Below, piece after piece: positions 1 through 10,086 of a stretch of DNA of 10,785 nucleotides. The DNA lies in assembly GCA_902803185.1 (NCBI GenBank), contig CADCOV010000015.1, forward strand, positions 1-10,785, read 5' to 3'. Numbering within the stretch: the stretch's first letter is position 1; each line of letters opens with the position of its first letter. Source of the stretch: an uncultured Eubacteriales bacterium. Lineage in GTDB: Bacteria; Bacillota; Clostridia; Peptostreptococcales; Anaerovoracaceae. The notes beneath the pieces were generated by a model. It made no database searches and was not told where the DNA came from. It was given only the letters and a program-made list of their open reading frames with translations. Position numbers and translations under genes: made by a program.

Positions 1-1
1 C

Positions 2-277
2 ATCGCCCAGATCAAAAAAGGCATCCTCCACAAGGGCTTCTCCCTCATCGACTGCCAGGCCCTCTGCCCGACCTACTACGGCCGCAAGAACAAAAAAGGC
101 GACGCGGTGAACATGCTGCTCGCCCAGCAGAAGAACGGCATGACCAGGGCGAAATACGACGCCCTCTCCCCGGAGGAACGGGAAGGCAAGTATTTCATCG
201 GCACCATGAAGGAAGAGGATTATCCGGAATTCACGGATATGTATCAGAAGATCATCGATCAGGCCCAGGGGAGGTAA
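2..277 (+). CDS. 2-oxoacid:ferredoxin oxidoreductase beta subunit, C-terminal end (KorB-like)
   Basis: Only the last 91 codons are present; the gene starts upstream of the window. The visible part carries a CPTYYGRKNK stretch followed by GDAVNML and ends with an IGTMKEEDYPEFTDMY tail. This matches the C-terminal region of thiamine-diphosphate-binding beta subunits of 2-oxoglutarate-type ferredoxin oxidoreductases. These cytoplasmic enzymes oxidatively decarboxylate a 2-oxoacid with CoA, reducing ferredoxin and giving an acyl-CoA. The stop codon lies 3 bases before the next start, and the ribosome site of the next gene (GGGGAGG, 268-274) lies inside this gene's last codons, so the two are translationally linked. 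The neighbour encodes the gamma subunit, which supports the assignment. Substrate preference (2-oxoglutarate versus pyruvate or a branched 2-oxoacid) cannot be proved from this fragment; 2-oxoglutarate is favoured because the partner is fused to a succinyl-CoA-type transferase. Confidence 0.85.
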   Translation: MAQIKKGILHKGFSLIDCQALCPTYYGRKNKKGDAVNMLLAQQKNGMTRAKYDALSPEEREGKYFIGTMKEEDYPEFTDMYQKIIDQAQGR

Positions 278-280
278 CCA

Positions 281-2329
281 ATGGCAGAACAGAAAATCGA
301 AATGCGCTTCACCGGTTCCGGCGGACAGGGCGTCATCCTGGCCAGCATCATCTTCGCGGACGCGGCGATCCTGGAGGGCCGGAACGCGCTCCAGTCCCAG
401 AGCTACGGTCCGGAGGCCAGAGGCGGCACCAGCAAGGCGGAGACCATCATCGGCAGCCACGACCTGGATTACTCCAAGGTCACCACGCCGGACTTCCTCC
501 TCTCCCTGAACCAGGACTCCCTGGATAAGTACTGTACGGAAATCAAAGACACCACCGTCGTCATGATCGACAGCTCCCTGACCATCCCTGAGTCCCTGAA
601 GGACCACAACGTGGTGGCGCTGCCGATCCTGAGCACCGCCCGGGACACCATCGGCAAGTCCATGGTCGCCAACATCGTGGCGGTGGGCGCCATCAACGCC
701 ACCCTGGGCCTGTTCCCGGAGGAGATCCTCCAGGAGGCGGTCAAGGCGCACATCCCGGCAGGCACCGAGCAGCTGAACATGCTGGCCCTGAAGGAAGGCG
801 AGCGCATCGCCCAGGCCCGGCAGGAGGCCGGCGAGGCCTTCCGCATCCGCTGCCCGCGCCTCATGAACCGCATCGTCACCGCGGACCAGGCCGCCTCCAT
901 GATCGAGGACGGCTTCACCGTCGCTGTCAGCGGCTTCACCCCTTCCGGCTGCCCGAAGGCGGTCACGAAGGAACTGGCCCGCCAGGCGAAGGAAGGCAGG
1001 AACGTCAAGATCACCCTCCTCTCCGGCGCTTCCACCGGCGAAGAGATCGACTCCACCCTGGCCGAGGCCGGCGTCATCGCCAAGCGCGCCCCTTACATCA
1101 CCAGCAAGGTTCTTCGGAAGACGCTGAACGACACCGGCGTCCTCTATCAGGACGCCCATCTGGGCGACATGGCCCAGAACACCCGCTACGGCTTCTACGG
1201 CCACGTGGATATCGCTTTGATCGAAGCCTGCGCCATCACCGAGGACGGCGGCATCGTGCCGACCACCGCCATCGGGGCCAGCGACACCTTTGTCAAGATG
1301 GCGGACAAGGTCATCGTGGAGATGAACCTGACCCAGCCGGCCGAGCTGGAAGGCCTCCACGACATCTATCCGCAGAACGACCCGCCGGCCCGGCAGCCGA
1401 TCCCGATCACCTCCGTGGACCAGCGCATCGGCGACACCTGCATCCACTGCGACCCTGAGAAGATCGCCGCCGTGGTGATCTCCGAGGTCGTCGAGATGCC
1501 GCGGGCCCTGGCCAAGCCGGATGAGGTCAGCCAGAAGATCGCGGACAACATCGTCGCCTTCCTGGAGGACGAGAAGAAGGCCGGCCGCCTCTCCGCGGAC
1601 GTCCTCCCGCTCCAGTCCGGCGTGGGCAATGTGGCGAACGCGGTCCTCGCGGGCCTCAAAGCCTCCGACTTCACCCACCTGAACTTCTACTCCGAGGTCA
1701 TGCAGGACGCCATCCTGGACCTGATCGACTGCGGCAAGGCGGACTACTGCTCCGCCACCTCCGTCTGCCTCTCCCGGGAGTACATGGACAGATTCATGGA
1801 TAACCTCTCCTTCTACAAGCGCCACGTGGTCCTGCGGGACTCCGAGGTCAGCAACAACGGCGAGGTCATCCGGCGTCTGGGCGTCATCGCCATGAACACC
1901 GCTATCGAAGCGGACATCTACGGCAACGTGAACTCCTCCCACATGATGGGCACGAGGGTCTATAACGGCATCGGCGGCAGCTGCGACTACGCGAGAGGCG
2001 CGGCCCTCACCATCTTCATGACCGCCTCCACCGCCAAGGACGGCAAGATCTCCAGCATCGTCCCGATGGTCACCCACGTGGACAGCTGCGAGCATGACGT
2101 GGACGTCATCGTCACCGAGCAGGGTCTGGCGGATCTCAGAGGCCTGGCGCCGAAGGAACGGGTCGAGCGGATCATCGAAAACTGCGCCCACCCGGACTAC
2201 CGGCCGCTGCTTTGGGACTACTACCACAGGGCCCTCGAAAAGTGCGGGCCGGTGCAGACCCCTCACCTGCTGAAGGAGTGCTTCTCCTTCCACACCAGGT
2301 TCGAAGAGACCGGCACGATGCTGAAATAG
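281..2329 (+). CDS. Fusion of 2-oxoacid:ferredoxin oxidoreductase gamma subunit with succinyl-CoA:acetate CoA-transferase (Cat1-like)
   Basis: Two complete enzymes sit in one 682-residue protein. Residues 1 to about 180 are an oxidoreductase gamma subunit: the TGSGGQG loop at 11-17 and SQSYGPEARGG at 39-49 are hallmarks of KorC/PorC-type subunits. Residues about 188-682 (495 residues, the normal length of a free enzyme) are a class I acetyl-CoA hydrolase/transferase. It begins with the usual N-terminal IRCPRL, followed by SGFTPSGCPKAV, and has a QSGVGNVANAVLAGL stretch at 445-459, the likely catalytic Glu472 in YSEVMQD, and GIGGSCDYARGA at 563-574. From memory this resembles Clostridium kluyveri Cat1 closely along its length. 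There is almost no linker. The expected transferase reaction is succinyl-CoA + acetate to succinate + acetyl-CoA. The inference is that acyl-CoA made by the oxidoreductase is handed to the fused transferase, conserving the thioester without ATP. No frameshift is needed; the frame is continuous with even codon use. Start: ATG with GGGGAGG six bases upstream. Confidence 0.92.
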   Translation: MAEQKIEMRFTGSGGQGVILASIIFADAAILEGRNALQSQSYGPEARGGTSKAETIIGSHDLDYSKVTTPDFLLSLNQDSLDKYCTEIKDTTVVMIDSSLTIPESLKDHNVVALPILSTARDTIGKSMVANIVAVGAINATLGLFPEEILQEAVKAHIPAGTEQLNMLALKEGERIAQARQEAGEAFRIRCPRLMNRIVTADQAASMIEDGFTVAVSGFTPSGCPKAVTKELARQAKEGRNVKITLLSGASTGEEIDSTLAEAGVIAKRAPYITSKVLRKTLNDTGVLYQDAHLGDMAQNTRYGFYGHVDIALIEACAITEDGGIVPTTAIGASDTFVKMADKVIVEMNLTQPAELEGLHDIYPQNDPPARQPIPITSVDQRIGDTCIHCDPEKIAAVVISEVVEMPRALAKPDEVSQKIADNIVAFLEDEKKAGRLSADVLPLQSGVGNVANAVLAGLKASDFTHLNFYSEVMQDAILDLIDCGKADYCSATSVCLSREYMDRFMDNLSFYKRHVVLRDSEVSNNGEVIRRLGVIAMNTAIEADIYGNVNSSHMMGTRVYNGIGGSCDYARGAALTIFMTASTAKDGKISSIVPMVTHVDSCEHDVDVIVTEQGLADLRGLAPKERVERIIENCAHPDYRPLLWDYYHRALEKCGPVQTPHLLKECFSFHTRFEETGTMLK

Positions 2330-2336
2330 GGCATGA

Positions 2337-2366
2337 ATAACGAAATGGTTATATTCAATTGTTATT
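2337..2366. promoter_or_regulatory. Possible operator: ATAAC/GTTAT inverted repeats upstream of the transporter promoter
   Basis: ATAAC at 2337-2341 is mirrored by GTTAT at 2348-2352, and its six-base form AATAAC (2336-2341) is mirrored by GTTATT at 2361-2366, which ends at the -35 box. Inverted half-sites here could bind a regulator, but this is A+T-rich DNA where short matches arise easily, so the call is weak. Confidence 0.25.
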
Positions 2367-2394
2367 TGAAAGTTCGCTGTTTCTGCGTTATAAT
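2366..2394 (+). promoter_or_regulatory. Sigma-70/SigA-type promoter for the AspT-like transporter
   Basis: TTGAAA (2366-2371) and a perfect TATAAT (2389-2394) are separated by exactly 17 bases. Transcription would start near 2400, giving a leader of about 40 bases with GAGG (2429-2432) before the ATG at 2441. The transporter can therefore be expressed independently of the upstream oxidoreductase operon. I saw no terminator between the two genes, so readthrough from upstream is also possible. Confidence 0.8.
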
Positions 2395-2440
2395 GCACTG
2401 GTAAATCATTACAGTATAAGCAATTAGTGAGGTAAATGCG

Positions 2441-3637
2441 ATGGGCGCTTATCTGGCGGGTTGTACCGCCTCGTTTCTGTCGACACTGACGATCGTCTTC
2501 GCGATCGCGGTGCTGGGCTACTATCTCGGATCGATCCACATCAAGGGCATCTCCCTCGGCACCGCAGGCGTACTTCTGGTCGCCCTGCTGGCCGGCATCC
2601 TGTTCAGCTTCGTGCCGAGCATCACCCTGGGCGAAAAGACGATCACCTTCTTCGGTGAAGGCGTGACTTCCAACTACTCCCTGCTCTCGAACATCGGCAC
2701 CGCCCTGTTCGTCACAGCGGTCGGCCTGATCGCCGGTCCGAAGTTCTTCCGCAGTTTCAACCGGAAGATGCTGGGTTACATCGTGATGGGCGTCGTGATC
2801 ATCCTGAGCGCCACCCTGCTGTGTGTCATCTTCATCAAGGTGGGCGGCGTGGATCCGAACATGATGGCCGGCCTCCTCACCGGTGCGCTGACCTCCACAC
2901 CGGGTCTTTCCGCGGCCAATGAAGTGGCTACCAACAGCGAGATGGTGACCGCCGGCTACGGCATCGCCTACCTCTTCGGCGTCATCGGCGTGGTTCTGTT
3001 TGTCCAGATCATGCCGAAGCTCCTCAAGGTCGACATGGACAAGGAGCGCAAGTCCTTCAACGCCGCCAACGACGTGGAGGTCCCGACCCTCAAGGACGGC
3101 CTCAAGAAGATCGACGCCTTCAGCTTCTTCCCGTTCGTCCTGGCCATCGTGCTGGGCCGCCTGATCGGTGCGATCTCCATCCCGGGGATCAACTTCTCCC
3201 TCGGCGGTTCCGGCGGCATGCTCTTCGGCGGCCTGATCATCGGTCACTACCGCCACATCGGCAACATCGACCTCCGCGTCGACAAAGCCACCCTGAACTT
3301 CATGAGAGAGCTGGGCCTGGCGCTGTTCCTGATCGGCGCAGGCGTCCCGGGCGGCGTCCGGTTCATCGAGAACGTCCACGTCTCCTATTTCATCTACGGT
3401 GCGATCCTGACCATGGTCAGCATGATCATCGGCTATCTGCTGGGCAGATACGTCTTCCACTTCAGCCTCTTCAACAACCTGGGTTCCATCACCGGCGGCA
3501 TGACATCCACCCCGGCGCTGGGCACCCTGATCGCCACCACCGGCACCGAGGACGTGGCCTCCGCCTATGCGGCCACCTACCCGATCGCGCTGGTCATGGT
3601 GGTCCTGATGGCCAAGTTCCTGATCATCATGGGCTGA
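2441..3637 (+). CDS. AspT/YidE-type (aspartate:alanine exchanger, AAE family) carboxylate transporter lacking RCK domains
   Basis: A very hydrophobic 398-residue inner-membrane protein built from two related halves. The signature GLLTGALTSTPGLSAANE (144-161) is echoed by GSITGGMTSTPALGTL (348-363), and the IGTALF...AGPKFF stretch (85-103) by LGLALF...GGVRF (291-308). This duplicated TGxxTSTPxL architecture defines the AspT/YidE/YbjL family, whose characterised members exchange aspartate for alanine or export succinate (SucE of corynebacteria). Most family members are about 550 residues and carry one or two RCK (TrkA-C) regulatory domains between the halves. Here only a hydrophilic linker of about 30 residues (194-224) is left. 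Its position behind a 2-oxoacid oxidoreductase/succinyl-CoA transferase operon suggests a dicarboxylate such as succinate as substrate; that is inference. It has its own promoter and terminator. The start ATG follows GTGAGGT by 7 bases. Confidence 0.82.
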   Translation: MGAYLAGCTASFLSTLTIVFAIAVLGYYLGSIHIKGISLGTAGVLLVALLAGILFSFVPSITLGEKTITFFGEGVTSNYSLLSNIGTALFVTAVGLIAGPKFFRSFNRKMLGYIVMGVVIILSATLLCVIFIKVGGVDPNMMAGLLTGALTSTPGLSAANEVATNSEMVTAGYGIAYLFGVIGVVLFVQIMPKLLKVDMDKERKSFNAANDVEVPTLKDGLKKIDAFSFFPFVLAIVLGRLIGAISIPGINFSLGGSGGMLFGGLIIGHYRHIGNIDLRVDKATLNFMRELGLALFLIGAGVPGGVRFIENVHVSYFIYGAILTMVSMIIGYLLGRYVFHFSLFNNLGSITGGMTSTPALGTLIATTGTEDVASAYAATYPIALVMVVLMAKFLIIMG

Positions 3638-3660
3638 GAACACGATATGACAAAGCACGG

Positions 3661-3691
3661 CCGCCGCGGGAAACCGCGGCGGTTTTCATTT
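3661..3691 (+). terminator. Rho-independent terminator of the transporter gene
   Basis: Perfect 9 bp stem CCGCCGCGG (3661-3669) / CCGCGGCGG (3674-3682) with a GAAA tetraloop, followed by TTTTCATTT. It lies 23 bases after the stop codon of the transporter. Confidence 0.93.
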
Positions 3692-3713
3692 GCTGCGAAC
3701 GGCGGATGCGGCG

Positions 3714-3777
3714 ATGTCCAAAAGAGCGTTTTTCCCGAATATGATGCCAGGATCGGGGGTTCACCGGATTTGGCCAT
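3714..3777. repeat. Intergenic repeat unit 1 (64 bp, ATGTCCA-N21-TGATGCCA-N21-TGGCCAT)
   Basis: First of three copies in the 338-base gap between the convergent transporter and MerR genes. ATGTCCA (3714-3720), TGATGCCA (3742-3749) and TGGCCAT (3771-3777) occupy the same relative places as in the other two copies; the right end has one mismatch to TGGACAT. TATGATGCCAG here (3740-3750) is an exact 11-base match to unit 2, and GATTTGGCCAT (3767-3777) matches the right end of unit 3 at 10 of 11 bases. The 21-base segments between the boxes are not conserved. I do not recognise the family. Confidence 0.7.
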
Positions 3778-3794
3778 GGATCAGCCCTGCAGAC

Positions 3795-3817
3795 GGCCTT
3801 TTCCCCGGCAAAAGGCC
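3795..3817. repeat. Hairpin between repeat units 1 and 2
   Basis: Perfect 8 bp stem GGCCTTTT (3795-3802) / AAAAGGCC (3810-3817) with a 7-base loop. It is embedded in a wider imperfect inverted repeat formed by the right end of unit 1 (TTTGGCCATGGATC, 3769-3782) and the left end of unit 2 (GGATCCCATGTCCAAA, 3818-3833). There is no T tract after the stem on either strand, so it is not a standard terminator. Confidence 0.6.
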
Positions 3818-3824
3818 GGATCCC

Positions 3825-3889
3825 ATGTCCAAATCAGCCATCCCCCGTCATTATGATGCCAGTTTCGCAAAAAAAGAAAAAATGGACAT
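3825..3889. repeat. Intergenic repeat unit 2 (65 bp, ATGTCCA-N22-TGATGCCA-N21-TGGACAT)
   Basis: ATGTCCA (3825-3831), TGATGCCA (3854-3861) and TGGACAT (3883-3889) are spaced as in units 1 and 3. The outer boxes are perfect reverse complements. TCCCATGTCCA (3821-3831) is an exact 11-base repeat of 3902-3912 in unit 3. The right half holds an A-rich tract (3869-3882) that serves as the T tract of a terminator on the opposite strand. Confidence 0.72.
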
Positions 3890-3914
3890 GAGAACCCGTC
3901 GTCCCATGTCCATT
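3869..3914 (-). terminator. Terminator for the MerR gene (minus strand), built from the ends of repeat units 2 and 3
   Basis: On the minus strand a perfect 10 bp stem (AATGGACATG / CATGTCCATT, 3881-3890 with 3905-3914, 14-base loop) is followed by TTTTCTTTTTTT. It lies about 60 bases past the stop codon of the MerR-type gene. The stem is made of the right box of unit 2 and the left box of unit 3, so the repeats themselves may supply the terminator. Confidence 0.7.
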
Positions 3915-3975: not shown

Positions 3976-4731
3976 CTACTTCCCGCAGTATGCCTCGATG
4001 GCTTTGGCCGCGAAAGCTGCGGTGCCCTCGCCCCCGGCCCGGTCGATGTTCTCCGTCATGTCCCCGCCGCCGGCGTACATCATGCCAAGGCCCCGCAGGA
4101 CCTCGTCGGTGCAGGTGTAGAAGTGGGCGGTGATGTGGTCCTGCAGCCGTTTCACCAGGGCCTGCGCCTCCGCCGACGCCGGGTCGCCGTCTTTGATCGC
4201 CCCGAAGGCGCCGAAGATCTCCTCCATCATCTGTTCGCCGGCCCGCTTCATCCCTTCGGTGCCGCCGGCCTTCACCCTCTCCTCATACTCCTTCCACTGG
4301 GGCGAGCTGCCCCAGGACGCCTTGGCCTGAGCCGCGTATTCGTCCAGCTTCCCTTTGTCAAAGGCGCTGAAATCCGGTCTCTTGTTTTCCATATACTTCA
4401 CTCCTAACATTTTCATTCCCTTGGCCAACAGGATCAGGTTCTCCGTGTGGGCCTTCTTGAGCTCCAGGAGCTCGATCTGCTGCTCCAGCGCCCGTCTGCG
4501 GTCAAAATCCGGGCTCTCGAGGATATCTCTGATGTCCTTCAGCGGGAACTCCAGCTCCCGGAACAGCAAAACCATCTGCAGCCGTTCCAGGGATCTCCCG
4601 TCGTAGAGGCGGTAGCCCGCCTCCGTGTAGCCCGCCGCCGGCAGCAGGCCGATCTTATCGTAGTACTGCAGGGTCCTGATGCTGACGCCCGTGAGCGCAC
4701 TGACCTCGTGGACGGTCATGCCCGTTTCCAT
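3976..4731 (-). CDS. MerR-family regulator with TipAS-type effector domain
   Basis: Cytoplasmic transcription activator of 251 residues from the chosen start. Residues 5 to about 75 are a MerR winged helix (TVHEVSALTGVSIRTLQYYDKIGLL, then GYRLYD and LERLQ), followed by the dimerisation helix with LEQQIELLELKK. Residues about 120-251 match the TipAS fold that binds thiopeptides and other antibiotics in TipAL relatives, with the typical HFYTCTDEVLRGLGMMY and C-terminal AIEAY. Start choice: an in-frame ATG at 4756-4758 lies inside the -10 box of the gene's own promoter, so that promoter cannot express it. The ATG at 4729-4731 has GGGAGGTG (4738-4745) six bases upstream and is the likely start. 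Such regulators usually sense a small molecule and control their own gene plus a resistance gene; here the operator sits only in front of merR itself. No efflux gene is adjacent. Transcription appears to end at the hairpin at 3881-3914. Confidence 0.88.
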   Translation of the reverse strand: METGMTVHEVSALTGVSIRTLQYYDKIGLLPAAGYTEAGYRLYDGRSLERLQMVLLFRELEFPLKDIRDILESPDFDRRRALEQQIELLELKKAHTENLILLAKGMKMLGVKYMENKRPDFSAFDKGKLDEYAAQAKASWGSSPQWKEYEERVKAGGTEGMKRAGEQMMEEIFGAFGAIKDGDPASAEAQALVKRLQDHITAHFYTCTDEVLRGLGMMYAGGGDMTENIDRAGGEGTAAFAAKAIEAYCGK

Positions 4732-4753
4732 CCTCTTCACCTCCCTCAGGAGT

Positions 4754-4784
4754 ATCATAAACTATGACGTAACGTCAGAGTCAA
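4754..4784 (-). promoter_or_regulatory. MerR-type operator-promoter of the TipAS-like regulator gene
   Basis: On the minus strand TTGACT (-35, 4779-4784) and TATGAT (-10, 4754-4759) are separated by 19 bases instead of 17. The spacer is filled by a dyad, TGACGT-T-ACGTCA, whose arms extend to ACT on one side and AGT on the other (4761-4781). An overlong spacer with a centred dyad is the hallmark of promoters that MerR proteins untwist and activate, so autoregulation is expected. The start point would fall near 4747, leaving a leader of about 16 bases that contains the ribosome site. The promoter occupies most of the gap after hicB. Confidence 0.9.
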
Positions 4785-5608: not shown

Positions 5609-6667
5609 ATGAGAAATATCACATTAGGAACCACCGGCATCACCGTTCCGCAGAACGCCTTCGGTGCCCTGCCGTGCCAGAGAGTGTCCCAGGAGGAAGC
5701 CGTCCACCTGCTCCGCAGGGCCTACGAGGGCGGCATGCGGTTCTTTGATACCGCCAGAGGCTATACCGACAGCGAGGGCAAGGTCGGCGAGGCCTTTGAC
5801 GGCATGCGGGACAAGGTATTCATCGCCACCAAGACGATGGCCAAGACCCCGGAGAAGTTCTGGGCGGACCTGGAGACATCCCTGAAGAACCTCCGCACCG
5901 ACTACATCGACATCTACCAGTTCCACATGGTCGACCAGTGCTGGCGGCCGGGCGACGGCAGCGGCATGTACGAGTGCATGCTGGAGGCGAAGGCCAAGGG
6001 GCTCATCCGCCACATCGGCGCCACCGCCCACAAGATCGGCGTCGCTGAAGAGCTGGTGGAATCCGGCCTTTACGAGACCCTGCAGTTCCCGTTCAGCTAC
6101 CTGTCCGGGGAAAGAGAGCAAAAGCTCGTCGCCAGCTGCAAGGAACACAACATGGGCTTCATCTGCATGAAGGGCCTGGCCGGCGGCCTGATCAACCGCT
6201 CCGATGCGGCGATGGCCTTCATGACCCAGTTCGACAACGCCCTGCCGATCTGGGGCATCCAGCGGGAGAACGAGCTGGACGAGTGGCTCTCCTACATGGA
6301 GGAGACGCCGGAGATGACAGAGGAGATCCGGACCTATATCGAGAGCGAGAAGGCGGAGCTCGCCGGCAACTTCTGCCGGGGCTGCGGCTACTGCTCCCCT
6401 TGCACCGTGGGGATCTCCGTCAAGGACTGCGCCCGCATGTCCCTCATGGTCCGCAGAGCCCCTTCCCAGGGCTGGCTCAGCCCGCACTGGCAGGAGGAGA
6501 TGGCGAAGATCAACGACTGCATCGAATGCGGCGTCTGCATGACGAGATGCCCTTACGAGCTGCCGATCCCGAAGCTCCTGCGCAAGAACCTGGCGGACTA
6601 CGAAGCCGTCCTGACCGAGGCGAAGAAGGCGGCAGAGGCCGGCGTCACCCGCTACAACGTGGAGTGA
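5609..6667 (+). CDS. Aldo/keto reductase with C-terminal ferredoxin-like 4Fe-4S domain
   Basis: 352 residues. Residues 1 to about 250 form an aldo/keto reductase TIM barrel with the catalytic tetrad in place: Asp47 (FFDTARGYTDSEGK), Tyr52, Lys75 (IATKT) and His106 (YQFHM). The C-terminal region has two cysteine groups: C256-x2-C259-x2-C262-x2-C265 and the classic C304-x2-C307-x2-C310-x3-C314-P. This is the ferredoxin-like class of predicted aldo/keto reductases common in anaerobes, with NAD(P)H and iron-sulfur electron transfer implied; the substrate is unknown. The reading frame stays open back to an ATG at 5447, but that lies upstream of the promoter. The ATG at 5609 has AGGAG (5598-5602) six bases upstream and begins the conserved sequence, so it is the likely start. 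The gene appears monocistronic, with its own promoter and terminator. Confidence 0.9.
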   Translation: MRNITLGTTGITVPQNAFGALPCQRVSQEEAVHLLRRAYEGGMRFFDTARGYTDSEGKVGEAFDGMRDKVFIATKTMAKTPEKFWADLETSLKNLRTDYIDIYQFHMVDQCWRPGDGSGMYECMLEAKAKGLIRHIGATAHKIGVAEELVESGLYETLQFPFSYLSGEREQKLVASCKEHNMGFICMKGLAGGLINRSDAAMAFMTQFDNALPIWGIQRENELDEWLSYMEETPEMTEEIRTYIESEKAELAGNFCRGCGYCSPCTVGISVKDCARMSLMVRRAPSQGWLSPHWQEEMAKINDCIECGVCMTRCPYELPIPKLLRKNLADYEAVLTEAKKAAEAGVTRYNVE

Positions 6668-6732: not shown

Positions 6733-7290
6733 CTATCTCAGCTTCAGCCCATCCCGGAAGGCGTCCCCCGCCTTTTCTCCCAGGCCGTAGTAGGCGTGGT
6801 TCACCGGGTCAAAGACGATCGGCCGTAGTTTCTTCGGGTCGATCTTGCCGTTTGTCAGAACGGACTCTTCAGCGCTGATGTTGACGATCTTCCCTTTCAT
6901 AAGGCAGATCTCCTCCTGCCAACTCAGCAGGGTGCACTCCAGGGTCATCGGGAGCTCTTTGATCAGCGGCGCGTTGACGTTCTCCGCCTTCTCCGTGTGG
7001 AATCCTGCCTTTTCCATCTTGTCCGGCACGTCGTTGCCGGAGTCGATGCCCACGTAGTCGCAGGCCACGACCTGGTCCTCCGTCGCCATACTGACGGTGA
7101 AGCAGCCGGTGGCCAGGATGTTCGCCACCGTCTTGTGGCCCGGACTCAGGCAGATGCAAACCTCATCCTCCTCGCTGAGGCCGCCCCAGGCAGCGTTCAT
7201 TGCGTCAGCTTTGCCGTTCTCGTCGTAGGTGCCGATGATGAACACCGGCTGCGGATAAGTCCACGGTTTGGAACCGAAATTCTTTCTCAT
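6733..7290 (-). CDS. Flavin reductase-like FMN-binding protein (flavoredoxin type)
   Basis: 185 residues, the normal size for the flavin-reductase-like split-barrel family. Recognisable features are the N-terminal KPWTYPQPVFIIGTYDENGKADAMNAAW, the SPGHKTVANI segment (49-58) and the FTVSMA strand (64-69), together forming the FMN site of flavoredoxin-type proteins. The C-terminus with IVFDPVNHAYYGLGEKAGDAF is typical of anaerobe members. It probably binds FMN and passes electrons in the cytoplasm; the partner is not evident. It is the last gene of a minus-strand operon, starting 12 bases after the stop codon of the enolase-superfamily gene, with GAGGAGG just upstream of its ATG, and it ends at a bidirectional terminator. 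Confidence 0.87.
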   Translation of the reverse strand: MRKNFGSKPWTYPQPVFIIGTYDENGKADAMNAAWGGLSEEDEVCICLSPGHKTVANILATGCFTVSMATEDQVVACDYVGIDSGNDVPDKMEKAGFHTEKAENVNAPLIKELPMTLECTLLSWQEEICLMKGKIVNISAEESVLTNGKIDPKKLRPIVFDPVNHAYYGLGEKAGDAFRDGLKLR

Positions 7291-7302
7291 GTCGTACCTC
7301 CT

Positions 7303-8421
7303 CTATTCTCCCACGATCGCGCTCTTTGCGATCTTTTCCCGCATCTTCAGCATGTCCGGCCGGATCGGCGTCCCGACCCGTTCGCTGGTGTGGAAGTGGC
7401 ACGGGGAGGACCATTCCAGCACGCTGTCCGTGAAGACTTCCGGGTAGTTCTCCACCGACGGGGTCACGTCGTGCGGATAGACCATGTTGGACAGGGCCGC
7501 CATCTCCACGCACATGGACTTTCCCACGTCGCTTTCCATCATGCCGCCGATCCAGCAGCCGATGCCCGCCTGCTCGCAGATCCGGTTGATGTCCAGGGAG
7601 TTCTGGATGCCGCCCACCCGGGCCGGCTTGATGTTGATGTAGCCGCAGGCCTTGAGTTCCGCCGCCTGCTCCGCCTGCCAGACGTCGAAGATGGACTCGT
7701 CCAGGCAGATTGGGGTGTCGATCTGCTGCTGGAACTTCGCTGCGCTGTAGATGTCCCCCACACGGAACGGCTGCTCGATCATGGCGAGGCCGAATTTGTC
7801 CACCTGCTTCAGGATGGCCAGGTCCTCCGGATCCGACGGATCGTAGCTGGAGTTCGCGTCCACGTGGAAGCGCTGCGTCGGGAAGGTGCTCCTGACCGCC
7901 TTCAGCATCTCGATGTCCCAGCCGTGGGCCATCTTGAGCTTCACCCGGCTGTAGCCTTTGTCGAAGGCGCCGCCGATGTCTTTGATCAGGTCGTCAAAGC
8001 TGTCCGCGATGCCGAAGCCCTCGCCCACCTCGATCTCGCCCGGGGTGTTGCCGATCATCTGGCCCAGCGTCTTGCCCTCGCAGTCCGCCGCCAGGGTCCA
8101 CCAGGCCATCTCCACCGCCGCCTTGGCGAAGGGATTGCCCTTGTAGTGGACGAGGCGCTCGTTCAGCTCCCGGGCGCTGCCGATGTCCTGGCCGATCAAA
8201 GCCGGCGCCAGGAAGTCCCTGGCGATCTCGAAGGCGCCGTCAGCGTACTCATAGCAGTAGGTCGGCGCGCCGAGCGGGCTGGATTCGCTCCAGCCCTCGT
8301 GCTCACCGGACACCATCCTGGCCATCAGGACCCGGTTGAAGGCGTCCGAGCCGTAGGCGGTCCGCCAAGGCCGCCAGAACCGGTTCTGTACCACATATAA
8401 TTCGATCCGATCGATCTTCAT
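7303..8421 (-). CDS. Enolase-superfamily enzyme, o-succinylbenzoate synthase / N-succinylamino acid racemase group
   Basis: 372 residues with a complete muconate-lactonising-type active site: Lys161-x-Lys163 (VKLKM), metal ligands Asp188 (HVDANSS), Glu216 (MIEQP) and Asp241 (CLDES), and the opposing base Lys265 (NIKPARVGG). The GGMMESDVGKS loop (292-302) is typical of the o-succinylbenzoate synthase/N-succinylamino acid racemase branch rather than of Ala-Glu epimerases. No menaquinone genes are nearby, and an anaerobe of this type may lack menaquinone, so racemisation or epimerisation of an N-acylated amino acid is the better guess; the exact substrate is unknown. It is the middle gene of a three-gene operon, 18 bases after the serine hydrolase, with GGGAG before its ATG. 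The neighbouring hydrolase of the D-aminopeptidase/beta-lactamase fold supports a role in D-amino acid or acyl-amino acid salvage. Confidence 0.88.
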   Translation of the reverse strand: MKIDRIELYVVQNRFWRPWRTAYGSDAFNRVLMARMVSGEHEGWSESSPLGAPTYCYEYADGAFEIARDFLAPALIGQDIGSARELNERLVHYKGNPFAKAAVEMAWWTLAADCEGKTLGQMIGNTPGEIEVGEGFGIADSFDDLIKDIGGAFDKGYSRVKLKMAHGWDIEMLKAVRSTFPTQRFHVDANSSYDPSDPEDLAILKQVDKFGLAMIEQPFRVGDIYSAAKFQQQIDTPICLDESIFDVWQAEQAAELKACGYINIKPARVGGIQNSLDINRICEQAGIGCWIGGMMESDVGKSMCVEMAALSNMVYPHDVTPSVENYPEVFTDSVLEWSSPCHFHTSERVGTPIRPDMLKMREKIAKSAIVGE

Positions 8422-8439: not shown

Positions 8440-10047
8440 TTACCAGGTCACCGGCACGAACCGGATGTTCCTGCTCCTGCCGTCGGAGAGGTACAGGACC
8501 GAGCGGCCCTCCTCCTCTTCAAATCTCGCCTCGCAGTACCGGGACCACTCCGCCGCGAAAGCCCCGTTCGGCAGCGGCCAAAGCCTGCTCTCGCCCTTCC
8601 TGAGCTGATACAGGTACGGGATGCCCTCCCGCTCGCAGACCTTGTACAGGGCGTCCACCTCTTCGCTGTAGTAGCTGCCCGCCGGGACGTGGCGCTGCAT
8701 GGTCTTCGCCTTGCCCGGCTCCATCTTCGTGAGGGGCACGCTGCCCTCAGGGGTGATGAACCAGGCGCTCCTCGGCCCCAGGTGGAGCCAGATGTCCAGC
8801 CTGCCCATCCGGTAGCGGTTCTCTCTCTCCCTCACGAGCGGGCTCCAGCCCAGCTCGTCCAAAGCCAGGAGCTGCTCTCCCTCCCGGCGGACCGGGATCG
8901 ACACCGCGTCCGGCAGCGGCGCGCAGTAAAACCCTGCCGCCTCTTCCTCCCGGAAGCTGTGGTCGAGGGCGATCTCCTCCCCGGCCTCCCGGCCGGTCTC
9001 AGGCTCTCCGCCGTAGACCGTATCGCTGTAGCGCGGCGAAAGCCCCAGCAGGATCTCCGCGATGGCGTACCCCGCCGGCTCCGTATAGGTGTTCTGGGTG
9101 TTCGCCACGATGGCGATGTCCAGATCGTCGTCCAGGAACCGCATGGTGAGGGCTCGGTAGGCCGCATCCTCGCCGCAGTGGCGGATGTAGCGGTGGCCTT
9201 CCACGCTCTCCACCCGGATCCCGCAGCAGTAGGTGCTCTCCTCCCCCGCCGGCAGCTCCGGCAAAGTGAACATCTCCGCGATGGTCTCCGGCCTGCAGAT
9301 CTTCGGCTCCCTGTAGTTGTCGATCCAGCGGATCAGATCCTCTGCCGTGGTGTGCAGGGAGGTGGCGCCGTAGGTGCCGTAGTTCAGCGGCGCCAGCTTG
9401 TACCCGGTGCCGTCGTCCCACCAGGACAAAGCCCTGCCCGGCATCACCTGCCGGCTGCTCTGCCGGAAGGAGGTGTGGGTCATCCCCAGAGGTCCGAAGA
9501 CCTTCCGTGCCAGGAAGGACTGGAGGTCCTCCCCCGCTGCGGCCTCGACGGCTGCGGCCAGCATGGCATAGCCGCCGTTGCTGTACATGAAGCGGCTCCC
9601 CGCCGGGAAGTTCAGGCTCTTCTGCCTGGCGAGGATCGCCAGGGCGTCCTCCCTGGTGATGTCGTCCACGTTGCGGGTCCCCCGCATGTCACACAGCTCC
9701 AGCATGTCTTTGACGCCGCTGATGTTCTGGGCCAACTGCCGCGGGGTGACTTTGTCCGGGAACCCGACGAGCTCCGGGATGTAGGTCCTGAGGTCCGCAT
9801 CGTAGTCGAACCGGCCCTCCTCCTGCAGCAGCATCCCCGCCATCACGGTGAACTGCTTTGAGACGGAAGCCACGTGGCACACTGTCTCAAAGGTCATCGG
9901 CGCGCCGGTCTCGATGTCGGCGCACCCGAAACACTTGTGGTAAACGGTCTCGCCCTTCAGCCGGACGATGACCTGGCCGCCGGGCGCTCCCGGAAGCTGC
10001 CACTTGTGGAAGATCCGGTCGATCTTCCTTTCCTGTTCGATGTTCAT
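8440..10047 (-). CDS. Beta-lactamase-fold serine hydrolase (class C / D-aminopeptidase-like), cytoplasmic
   Basis: 535 residues from the chosen start. The N-terminal 330 residues or so form a penicillin-binding/class C beta-lactamase-like domain: nucleophile motif S61-V-S-K64, Y155-S-N157, and H290-C-G292 in the place of the KTG box. The usual HHTSG-like stretch reads QNISGVKD here. Residues about 335-535 form an extra beta-rich C-terminal region of the sort seen in D-aminopeptidase-like members. There is no signal peptide or membrane anchor, which argues against a cell-wall enzyme and for hydrolysis of a small peptide or acyl-amino acid in the cytoplasm. Start: a TTG at 10063-10065 is in frame, but AAGGAG (10055-10060) lies just downstream of it and 7 bases before the ATG at 10045-10047, which is therefore the likely start. 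First gene of the operon with the racemase-like enzyme and flavoredoxin-like protein. Exact substrate unknown. Confidence 0.87.
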   Translation of the reverse strand: MNIEQERKIDRIFHKWQLPGAPGGQVIVRLKGETVYHKCFGCADIETGAPMTFETVCHVASVSKQFTVMAGMLLQEEGRFDYDADLRTYIPELVGFPDKVTPRQLAQNISGVKDMLELCDMRGTRNVDDITREDALAILARQKSLNFPAGSRFMYSNGGYAMLAAAVEAAAGEDLQSFLARKVFGPLGMTHTSFRQSSRQVMPGRALSWWDDGTGYKLAPLNYGTYGATSLHTTAEDLIRWIDNYREPKICRPETIAEMFTLPELPAGEESTYCCGIRVESVEGHRYIRHCGEDAAYRALTMRFLDDDLDIAIVANTQNTYTEPAGYAIAEILLGLSPRYSDTVYGGEPETGREAGEEIALDHSFREEEAAGFYCAPLPDAVSIPVRREGEQLLALDELGWSPLVRERENRYRMGRLDIWLHLGPRSAWFITPEGSVPLTKMEPGKAKTMQRHVPAGSYYSEEVDALYKVCEREGIPYLYQLRKGESRLWPLPNGAFAAEWSRYCEARFEEEEGRSVLYLSDGRSRNIRFVPVTW

Positions 10048-10086
10048 ACCCTTTCTCCTTTGCAAGAAGACGTTTCTCTGCCCTCT

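What the first reader, a model, noticed from the sequence alone, without database searches (positions are those of the whole stretch)
281..2329. Single-chain fusion of oxidoreductase gamma subunit and succinyl-CoA:acetate CoA-transferase
The frame is open across a complete KorC-like domain and a complete Cat1-like transferase, with both sets of motifs intact (GSGGQG, YGPEARGG; Glu472, QSGVGN, GIGGS) and almost no linker. A separate enzyme normally works after the oxidoreductase complex; here it would be built into it, suggesting direct transfer of the acyl-CoA product or fixed 1:1 stoichiometry. I do not know of a characterised example. Channelling is inference.
Basis: partly seen in the sequence, partly recalled or inferred. 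Interest (0 to 1): 0.72.

Follow-up and report, generated by a model that had tools for sequence, protein, structure and literature searches.

The report
Oxidoreductase gamma subunit fused to CoA-transferase
In one uncultured bacterium, the CoA-binding subunit of an enzyme that probably makes succinyl-CoA is joined in one protein to the enzyme that would use succinyl-CoA next; the join looks real and very rare, but whether it changes how the enzymes work has not been tested.

Summary
Window 281-2329 is one 682-codon frame with a complete PF01558 gamma (KorC) domain and a complete succinyl-CoA:acetate CoA-transferase (Cat), catalytic motifs intact. It is not a lone assembly accident: the protein collection holds a second allele (P0002, four substitutions, same frame). 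No other KorC-Cat fusion is among the listed hits of three protein searches or five genome surveys, one of them all 349 held genomes of the family.

Unfused relatives suggest its origin. In six other loci cat follows korC after 2-78 nt; in 22 of 80 KorC loci the next gene is sucC, the other succinyl-CoA consumer; in 53 of 80 neither was seen. Here cat's start codon is gone and an AGGAGG sits where its ribosome site would be. A KorC-SucC fusion (P0206) is in the database, with caveats.

Most likely: KorAB makes succinyl-CoA on the CoA-binding gamma subunit, and the attached transferase moves CoA to acetate, giving succinate and acetyl-CoA. Genuine fusion: about 0.9. Two working activities in one chain: about 0.6. 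Channelling is inference. New domain architecture of known enzymes, no new chemistry.

The parts
2..277 (+). korB 3' end (2-oxoacid:ferredoxin oxidoreductase beta subunit), cut by the contig start
   Evidence: NF007207 2-oxoglutarate ferredoxin oxidoreductase beta, 64 bits, profile 184-271 of 277, below its cut-off of 364 on this fragment; 68% identical to the korB of genus mate G005
281..2329 (+). fused gene: KorC (gamma) - Cat (succinyl-CoA:acetate CoA-transferase), 682 aa
281..829 (+). KorC half, residues 1-183; P-loop-like GSGGQG at 314-331
   Evidence: PF01558 14-173; solved relative 3on3_A E 2.1e-41; AF2 pLDDT per block of ten 83-96 apart from 74 (first block) and 58 (residues 41-50)
815..841 (+). 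junction, residues 179-187 (ARQEAGEAF); AGGAGG at 822-827 reads as a relic ribosome-binding site; the codon that aligns with the cat ATG of L034 is GAG (833-835)
   Evidence: comparison with unfused junctions in L018, L034, L022, L045, L046, L102; positions; no start codon in any frame between 779 and 863 and no stop in the fused frame; AF2 low-confidence break at 183-187. That it is a relic is inference
842..2326 (+). Cat half, residues 188-682; catalytic E472 (AarC Glu294), N525 (Asn347), G566 (Gly388), V448 (Val270)
   Evidence: TIGR03458 and NF053853 above cut-off; 2g39_A E 1e-154, AarC structures E about 1e-143; residue mapping; roles of residues from PMC4876117 passages
863..865 (+). internal ATG (Met195), the first in-frame ATG of the Cat half; overlaps TGA 864-866 of the +1 frame
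   Evidence: the AGGAGG ends 35 nt before it
2366..2394 (+). sigma-70-like promoter TTGAAA-17-TATAAT before the permease gene
   Evidence: 11 of 12 consensus matches; 3 promoter-like sites found in 1-3900 against 1.1 in shuffles
2441..3637 (+). AspT/YidE/SucE-type permease (PF06826), 398 aa; candidate succinate exporter
   Evidence: PF06826 215.8 bits; a 60-61% identical permease is beside cat in genus mates G003, G005, G010
3659..3684 (+). terminator-like stem-loop after the permease
   Evidence: 11 pairs, 9 G-C; 8 terminator-like sites found against 2.4 in shuffles

Best explanation
A natural in-frame fusion of two neighbouring genes of a korABC-cat operon. The product is the gamma subunit of a (probably 2-oxoglutarate) ferredoxin oxidoreductase carrying a class I succinyl-CoA:acetate CoA-transferase on its C-terminus. 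KorAB decarboxylates 2-oxoglutarate, the gamma domain supplies CoA through its P-loop, succinyl-CoA is released beside the tethered transferase, Glu472 takes the succinyl group as an anhydride, CoA goes to acetate, and succinate plus acetyl-CoA leave; succinate may then be exported by the adjacent AspT/SucE-type permease. Shown: the fusion, both domain identities, catalytic residues, the unfused gene order in relatives. Inferred: assembly with KorAB, substrate identity, direction, any kinetic benefit.
For: Open frame with complete domains; second allele in the same frame. It is the only KorC match in this genome at E<=1e-20, and the only strong KorB match lies just upstream of it (others 29-34% identical, E 4e-9 or weaker); the bin is 79% complete. 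cat directly follows korC in 5 of 80 named KorC loci plus L102 of the same family. sucC directly follows in 22 of the same 80, with sucCD then an AspAlEx permease in 5. KorC groups with three genus mates (93/86, not starred), near a starred seven-row clade holding four of the six korC-cat loci. The Cat half falls in a starred 122-row set that also holds the Cats of L018, L034 and L102. An AspAlEx-type permease sits on the same strand near cat in 28 of 55 other fetched cat loci. The genome has an HMGL-family synthase, aconitase (958.6 bits, cut-off 612) and an isocitrate-dehydrogenase-like gene in one cluster, a possible route to 2-oxoglutarate, and acetate kinase; no SucC reached the cut-off. 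KorC fused to SucC in P0206. The gamma domain binds CoA (PMC8091585 passage). The same two reactions by separate enzymes in an oxidative TCA cycle are described in PMC9768450 (passages).
Against: No biochemical or expression data. One protein cluster only. In 53 of 80 KorC loci neither cat nor sucC was found downstream, some with short downstream sequence. Of the six korC-cat loci only three have a Cat in the window's 122-row set; L022's groups with the genus mates' Cats and those of L045/L046 stand apart, so the neighbourhood arose more than once or cat was exchanged. korA and most of korB are missing from the contig and no other convincing KorB was found in the bin. No PF00285 citrate synthase; the HMGL and isocitrate-dehydrogenase-like genes are partial in L164 and below all listed cut-offs. 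Gamma models below cut-off. AarC Arg228 maps to Met406, with Arg408 two residues on. Genus mate G005 has korABC and a different cat-permease pair on separate contigs, so fusion is not needed in the genus. The permease has its own promoter-like site. [quoted passage not shown]
Confidence: 0.6

Rival explanations
1. The fusion is real but incidental: two operon neighbours drifted into one frame and the halves work as they did before, without channelling or any selected benefit.
For: Known from one cluster only; gaps in unfused relatives are 2-78 nt and L034, L022 and L045 already have both genes in the same frame, so few changes are needed; genus mates use separate genes.
Against: Both halves keep catalytic residues and the two alleles stay open; the gamma subunit is the CoA-handling one; a KorC-SucC fusion hints that the same kind of join arose elsewhere.
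Confidence: 0.25
2. It is two genes after all: a one-base error between residues 179 and 187 hides an ATGA overlap (TGA at 864-866 would end KorC in the +1 frame, ATG at 863 would start Cat).
For: The ATGA overlap exists at exactly that place, TIGR03458 begins matching at residue 195, and the genome is in 304 contigs.
Against: A second allele with four substitutions carries the same frame; RIRCPRL at residues 188-194, upstream of that ATG, is kept in the Cat frame in P0003, and RIRC in further stand-alone Cats; KorC homology runs in the fused frame to about residue 178.
Confidence: 0.07
3. The fused gene also yields a free transferase, by internal initiation at Met195 or by cleavage of the linker, so that only some KorC carries Cat.
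For: In-frame ATG at 863 at a position where the transferase family model begins; the linker is a low-confidence break in the model.
Against: The AGGAGG (822-827) ends 35 nt before that ATG, too far for a usual ribosome site; no other start codon between 779 and 863 in any frame.
Confidence: 0.15
4. The complex runs the other way: Cat activates succinate with acetyl-CoA and KOR carboxylates succinyl-CoA to 2-oxoglutarate for glutamate synthesis. This concerns direction and can hold together with the best explanation of the anatomy.
For: Both reactions are reversible (established knowledge); no PF00285 citrate synthase in the bin; [quoted passage not shown]
Against: Aconitase and an isocitrate-dehydrogenase-like gene in one cluster with an HMGL-family synthase suggest an oxidative route to 2-oxoglutarate; a possible succinate exporter beside it.
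Confidence: 0.3

Closest known systems
korABC + cat (unfused) loci L018, L034, L022, L045, L046, L102
   Same: Same gene order korC-cat; cat 49-64% and korC 52-61% identical to the window's halves
   Different: Two separate genes with stop and start codons, 2-78 nt apart
korABC + sucCD (+ AspAlEx permease) loci, e.g. L025, L033, L038, L041, L047
   Same: KOR followed by an enzyme that consumes succinyl-CoA, and the same permease type
   Different: Succinyl-CoA synthetase instead of CoA-transferase; separate genes
KorC-SucC fusion P0206 (also P0198, P0208)
   Same: Gamma subunit joined to a succinyl-CoA-consuming enzyme
   Different: Unrelated partner enzyme; P0198 and P0208 have broken SucC ends and may be sequencing artefacts; P0206 is a single sequence
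korA-korC and korB-korC fusions in Archaea (PMC11237513, one passage read) and KorB/KorC fusions
   Same: KorC in a longer chain made from neighbouring genes
   Different: Fused to a subunit of the same complex, not to a different enzyme
[quoted passage not shown]
   Same: Cat half above curated cut-offs, catalytic Glu, Asn, Gly kept
   Different: The solved members, and the listed hits apart from P0002 and P0033, are stand-alone proteins of about 500 aa
[quoted passage not shown]
   Same: The same two reactions in sequence
   Different: Separate enzymes; the words fusion, fused and operon were not found in that paper's main text

Membership tests
2-oxoacid:ferredoxin oxidoreductase gamma subunit (PF01558, KorC) | PF01558 match above the curated cut-off over the whole domain | tested here: met
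   106.7 bits against 27.4, profile 1-171 of 173
2-oxoacid:ferredoxin oxidoreductase gamma subunit (PF01558, KorC) | P-loop for CoA binding | tested here: met
   G12, G14, G15, Q16, G17 are nearly invariant (90% or more) in a 25-row alignment, two rows of which are Cat only. That the gamma domain has a CoA-binding P-loop is from a PMC8091585 passage; that GSGGQG is that loop is my inference
2-oxoacid:ferredoxin oxidoreductase gamma subunit (PF01558, KorC) | Encoded with korA and korB | tested here: inconclusive
   korB end directly upstream (2-277); korA is not on the contig and was not searched for by itself; no second strong KorB in the bin; genus mates G005, G011, G012 have korABC
2-oxoacid:ferredoxin oxidoreductase gamma subunit (PF01558, KorC) | Curated assignment to a 2-oxoglutarate enzyme | tested here: not met
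   Gamma models below cut-off: NF006323 174.5 of 235, OorC NF006275 97.8 of 216; the substrate rests on gene neighbourhood
Succinyl-CoA:acetate CoA-transferase (class I, Cat1/ScpC) | Curated family cut-off | tested here: met
   TIGR03458 712.3 of 658.7; NF053853 690.8 of 500
Succinyl-CoA:acetate CoA-transferase (class I, Cat1/ScpC) | Catalytic Glu294, Asn347, Gly388 of AarC | tested here: met
   E472, N525, G566 by the ungapped alignment blocks, offset 178
Succinyl-CoA:acetate CoA-transferase (class I, Cat1/ScpC) | Arg228 of the mobile 230s loop | tested here: inconclusive
   Maps to M406; R408 is nearly invariant among the 20 rows of A4, so a loop shift is possible
Succinyl-CoA:acetate CoA-transferase (class I, Cat1/ScpC) | Enzymatic activity with succinyl-CoA and acetate | not testable with these tools
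   Needs purified protein
Known fusion architecture KorC-Cat | Other proteins with PF01558 then PF02550/PF13336 | tested here: not met
   Only the window's own cluster (P0002) among the listed hits; only G000 among the listed rows. Limits are stated in the full report
AspT/SucE permease as succinate exporter | Transport of succinate | not testable with these tools
   Only family membership (PF06826); SucE1 belongs to the AspT family per PMC9527358 (passages)

The most novel reading that the evidence does not exclude
The gamma (CoA-binding) subunit of 2-oxoglutarate:ferredoxin oxidoreductase is a docking point onto which evolution has grafted succinyl-CoA-consuming enzymes more than once (CoA-transferase here, succinyl-CoA synthetase beta in P0206), giving a single machine that turns 2-oxoglutarate plus acetate into succinate plus acetyl-CoA, with CoA handed from the gamma P-loop to the tethered transferase without free succinyl-CoA.
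Probability: 0.3. Interest if true: 0.68.

Novelty: new variant of a known kind. Interest (0 to 1): 0.5.

Why it matters
Fusion of genes that are separate elsewhere is classical evidence that the products act together. Here it joins the CoA-binding subunit of a ferredoxin-dependent 2-oxoacid oxidoreductase to an enzyme that would consume its product, and the alternative consumer (SucC) appears fused to the same subunit elsewhere. That makes a clear, testable prediction: succinyl-CoA is handed over locally in these anaerobes. It also supplies a natural single-chain construct for testing channelling between an oxidoreductase and a CoA-transferase, and ties an AspT-type permease to succinate metabolism through gene neighbourhood.

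Tried and rejected
Assembly chimera or random joining: not favoured, because of the second allele and because some unfused relatives have the same two genes in the same order. Foreign contig in the bin: considered; KorC (61-65%) and the korB end (63-68%) are closest to genus mates, so not favoured. The Cat half is not the genus mates' Cat (51-54%). Its closest listed relatives (P0003-P0010, 69-71%) come without taxonomy or context; some lower hits are named Oscillospiraceae by a source. In the 393 sampled genomes of the order the best listed stand-alone match was 56%, in the family 59% (L102). Whether cat was acquired horizontally or is an old operonic copy lost in genus mates I could not decide.

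Alignments A1 and A3 placed the KorC rows wrongly against the Cat half and were not used for structure; from A1 only the stand-alone Cat rows at the junction are quoted. A2 aligned them better and went to AF2. The model is good for KorC but poor for Cat (mean pLDDT 62.1, pTM 0.45), so no fold search was run and no claim on domain packing is made. A4 was used only for conservation.

Literature: searches listed no title on a KorC-CoA-transferase fusion. Searches gave zero papers, which partly reflects that colons in enzyme names cannot be searched; the library lacks most subscription journals. From I looked for terms in PMC11237513: it reports korA-korC and korB-korC fusions in Archaea, and the terms CoA-transferase and CoA transferase do not occur in its main text. 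I cannot say that the present fusion is unpublished.

P0198 and P0208 as support for a KorC-SucC fusion: downgraded, their SucC ends are broken.
Full report
What is there. Window 281-2329 (+) is a single 682-codon frame. Residues 14-173 match PF01558, residues 199-399 PF02550 and residues 504-646 PF13336, all far above the curated cut-offs. The C-terminal half passes the NCBIfam cut-offs for succinate CoA-transferase (TIGR03458) and succinyl-CoA:acetate CoA-transferase ScpC (NF053853); it does not pass the one for butyryl-CoA:acetate CoA-transferase (630.8 of 740). Solved relatives are 3on3 for the gamma half (E 2.1e-41) and 2g39 and the AarC series for the transferase half (E 1e-154 and about 1e-143). 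By the ungapped AarC alignment blocks, Glu294, Asn347, Gly388 and Val270 correspond to E472, N525, G566 and V448; Arg228 corresponds to M406, with R408 close by. The roles of Glu294, Asn347 and Gly388 are from passages of PMC4876117.

Is it real. The protein collection holds P0002, 682 aa, differing by D82N, D108G, D430E and D507E, with the same continuous frame. Its cluster counts five member sequences, one of which may be the window's own; I can vouch for two alleles only, and I have no DNA for the second. The one structural loophole is an ATGA overlap: TGA in the +1 frame at 864-866 and ATG at 863 in the fused frame. A single-base error between residues 179 and 187 would turn the gene into two overlapping genes. 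The second allele and the conservation of RIRCPRL upstream of that ATG (P0003) speak against it.

How rare. The whole-protein search scored 7999 candidates, the ones sharing most words, with 7771 hits; of the 120 listed only P0002 is a KorC-Cat fusion. A second search of this kind from a distant KorC (P0124, 49% identical) gave 145 hits among 1463 candidates, 120 listed; none of the listed has PF02550. Fusions sharing no 5-residue words would be missed. In genomes, KorC hits were judged by open-frame length: 85 of 349 family genomes have a match at E<=1e-20 and only the window's genome has a 683-codon frame. In the phylum sample 157 of 398 genomes match at E<=1e-30; the row list is cut, and among the listed rows only this genome has that length, with two other long frames (483 and 370 codons, G1117 and G925) not followed up. 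Whole-protein surveys of 61, 393 and 391 genomes gave no second fusion among the rows listed; their lists are cut or thresholded. These sets overlap.

Where it came from. Of 80 named KorC loci (L018-L097) cat lies directly downstream on the same strand in five (L018, L022, L034, L045, L046) and sucC in 22; in 53 neither was found, some with little downstream sequence. Among 19 KorC loci of the family survey (L099-L117, about 1.5 kb of flank at most), cat follows in L102, sucC in L103 and L117, the permease in L116. Pfam confirmed eight of the downstream genes as SucC or SucD. In unfused korC-cat pairs the gap from stop to the cat ATG is 2 nt (L102), 8 (L018), 9 (L034), 30 or less depending on the start (L022), 65 (L046) and 78 (L045); frames agree in L034, L022 and L045 and differ in the other three. 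In the window the corresponding stretch reads CAG GAG GCC GGC GAG GCC TTC CGC: the AGGAGG at 822-827 lies 5 nt before the codon that aligns with the ATG of L034, which is GAG here. I read this as a fossil ribosome site; that is inference. On the KorC tree the window groups with three genus mates (93/86); with L044 they face, at a fork of 89/80, a starred seven-row clade that contains four of the six korC-cat loci, and also L145 (sucCD) and L020 and L039 (neither). On the Cat tree the window lies in a starred set of 122 rows with the Cats of L018, L034 and L102; L022's Cat groups with those of genus mates (L146-L148) and those of L045 and L046 stand apart. 118 of the 122 rows were picked by similarity to the window, so the size of the set means little. 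Genus mates G003, G005 and G010 carry cat beside an AspAlEx permease; in G005 and G010 the KorC lies on another contig.

What surrounds it. The end of korB precedes the gene by 3 nt. Downstream, 111 nt away, is an AspT/YidE/SucE-type permease with its own promoter-like sequence. A permease of this type is near cat, same strand, in 28 of 55 other cat loci fetched (window copies L001, L006, L098 and L160 left out; most flanks 1.5 kb): upstream in 25, downstream in the three genus mates. Identity to the window's permease is 60-61% in those three, 42% in L154 and 27-36% in the other 24. The korC-cat loci L018, L034, L045 and L046 show none within the 2.9-3.5 kb seen downstream. SucE1, a succinate exporter, belongs to this transporter family (PMC9527358, abstract and passages). 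The other genes scanned in the window are unrelated.

Metabolism of the host. The bin is 79% complete. On contig 221 it has an HMGL-family synthase fragment, a GntR-like regulator (recalled from its sequence, not scanned), an aconitase and an isocitrate-dehydrogenase-like gene in a row; further acetate kinase, a fumarase fragment, no PF00285 citrate synthase and no SucC over the cut-off. A Re-type citrate synthase is possible for the HMGL gene (recalled idea), but its listed models are homocitrate, citramalate and isopropylmalate synthases, all below cut-off. An oxidative route from citrate to 2-oxoglutarate and then succinate is therefore plausible and not proven. The reductive direction is not excluded.

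Mechanism. A passage of PMC8091585 states that residues of domain III, the gamma domain, form a P-loop responsible for CoA binding in this enzyme class. The fusion thus places a CoA-transferase on the CoA-handling subunit. The AF2 model shows the last KorC helix (163-184), a low-confidence break at 183-187 and then the first Cat helix (192-197); the Cat half is poorly predicted and packing is unknown. Local hand-over of succinyl-CoA is the obvious possible benefit. [quoted passage not shown] a tether cannot change that but could limit loss or hydrolysis of succinyl-CoA. This is inference.

A parallel. One search listed three proteins with PF01558 followed by PF08442: P0206 (541 aa, with PF00549 too, on a contig of 755,879 bases), P0198 and P0208. 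Their sequences show a KorC running into a SucC start. P0206 is complete; the other two are truncated or frameshifted in SucC and may be sequencing artefacts. If P0206 is genuine, KorC has been fused to two unrelated succinyl-CoA-consuming enzymes. Fusions of korC with korA or korB are known (PMC11237513, passage).

Verdict. A genuine, apparently very rare, new domain architecture built from well-known parts.

Noticed in passing
P0206 (541 aa), P0198, P0208: KorC fused to SucC, the succinyl-CoA synthetase beta subunit; P0206 complete, the other two with broken SucC ends.
   Followed up: partly
P0124-P0130: Seven proteins of 465-470 aa with PF01558 plus PF01418/PF01380 (RpiR-type regulator domains): a gamma subunit joined to a transcription-regulator type, in seven different clusters.
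   Followed up: no
P0194: KorC joined to a SurE-like domain (PF01975), 432 aa, single sequence; may be an artefact.
   Followed up: no
L025, L033, L038, L041, L047: korC-sucC-sucD-AspAlEx permease gene order, suggesting that this permease moves succinate or a related dicarboxylate.
   Followed up: partly
G000 contig 221 (L164): HMGL-family synthase, regulator, aconitase and isocitrate-dehydrogenase-like gene in a row in a bin without PF00285 citrate synthase; a candidate Re-type citrate synthase route.
   Followed up: partly
window 3976-4758 (-): MerR regulator with a TipAS antibiotic-recognition domain (PF07739).
   Followed up: no
window 5612-6667 (+): Aldo/keto reductase with a C-terminal 4Fe-4S dicluster domain.
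   Followed up: no
window 6733-8421 (-): Enolase-superfamily (MR_MLE) enzyme (7303-8421) with a flavin reductase-like gene just downstream (6733-7290).
   Followed up: no
window 8440-10065 (-): PF00144 (beta-lactamase family fold) serine hydrolase-like protein, 541 aa.
   Followed up: no
P0033 (691 aa): A CoA-transferase in which part of the PF02550 domain is present twice (two stretches); possibly an assembly artefact.
   Followed up: partly
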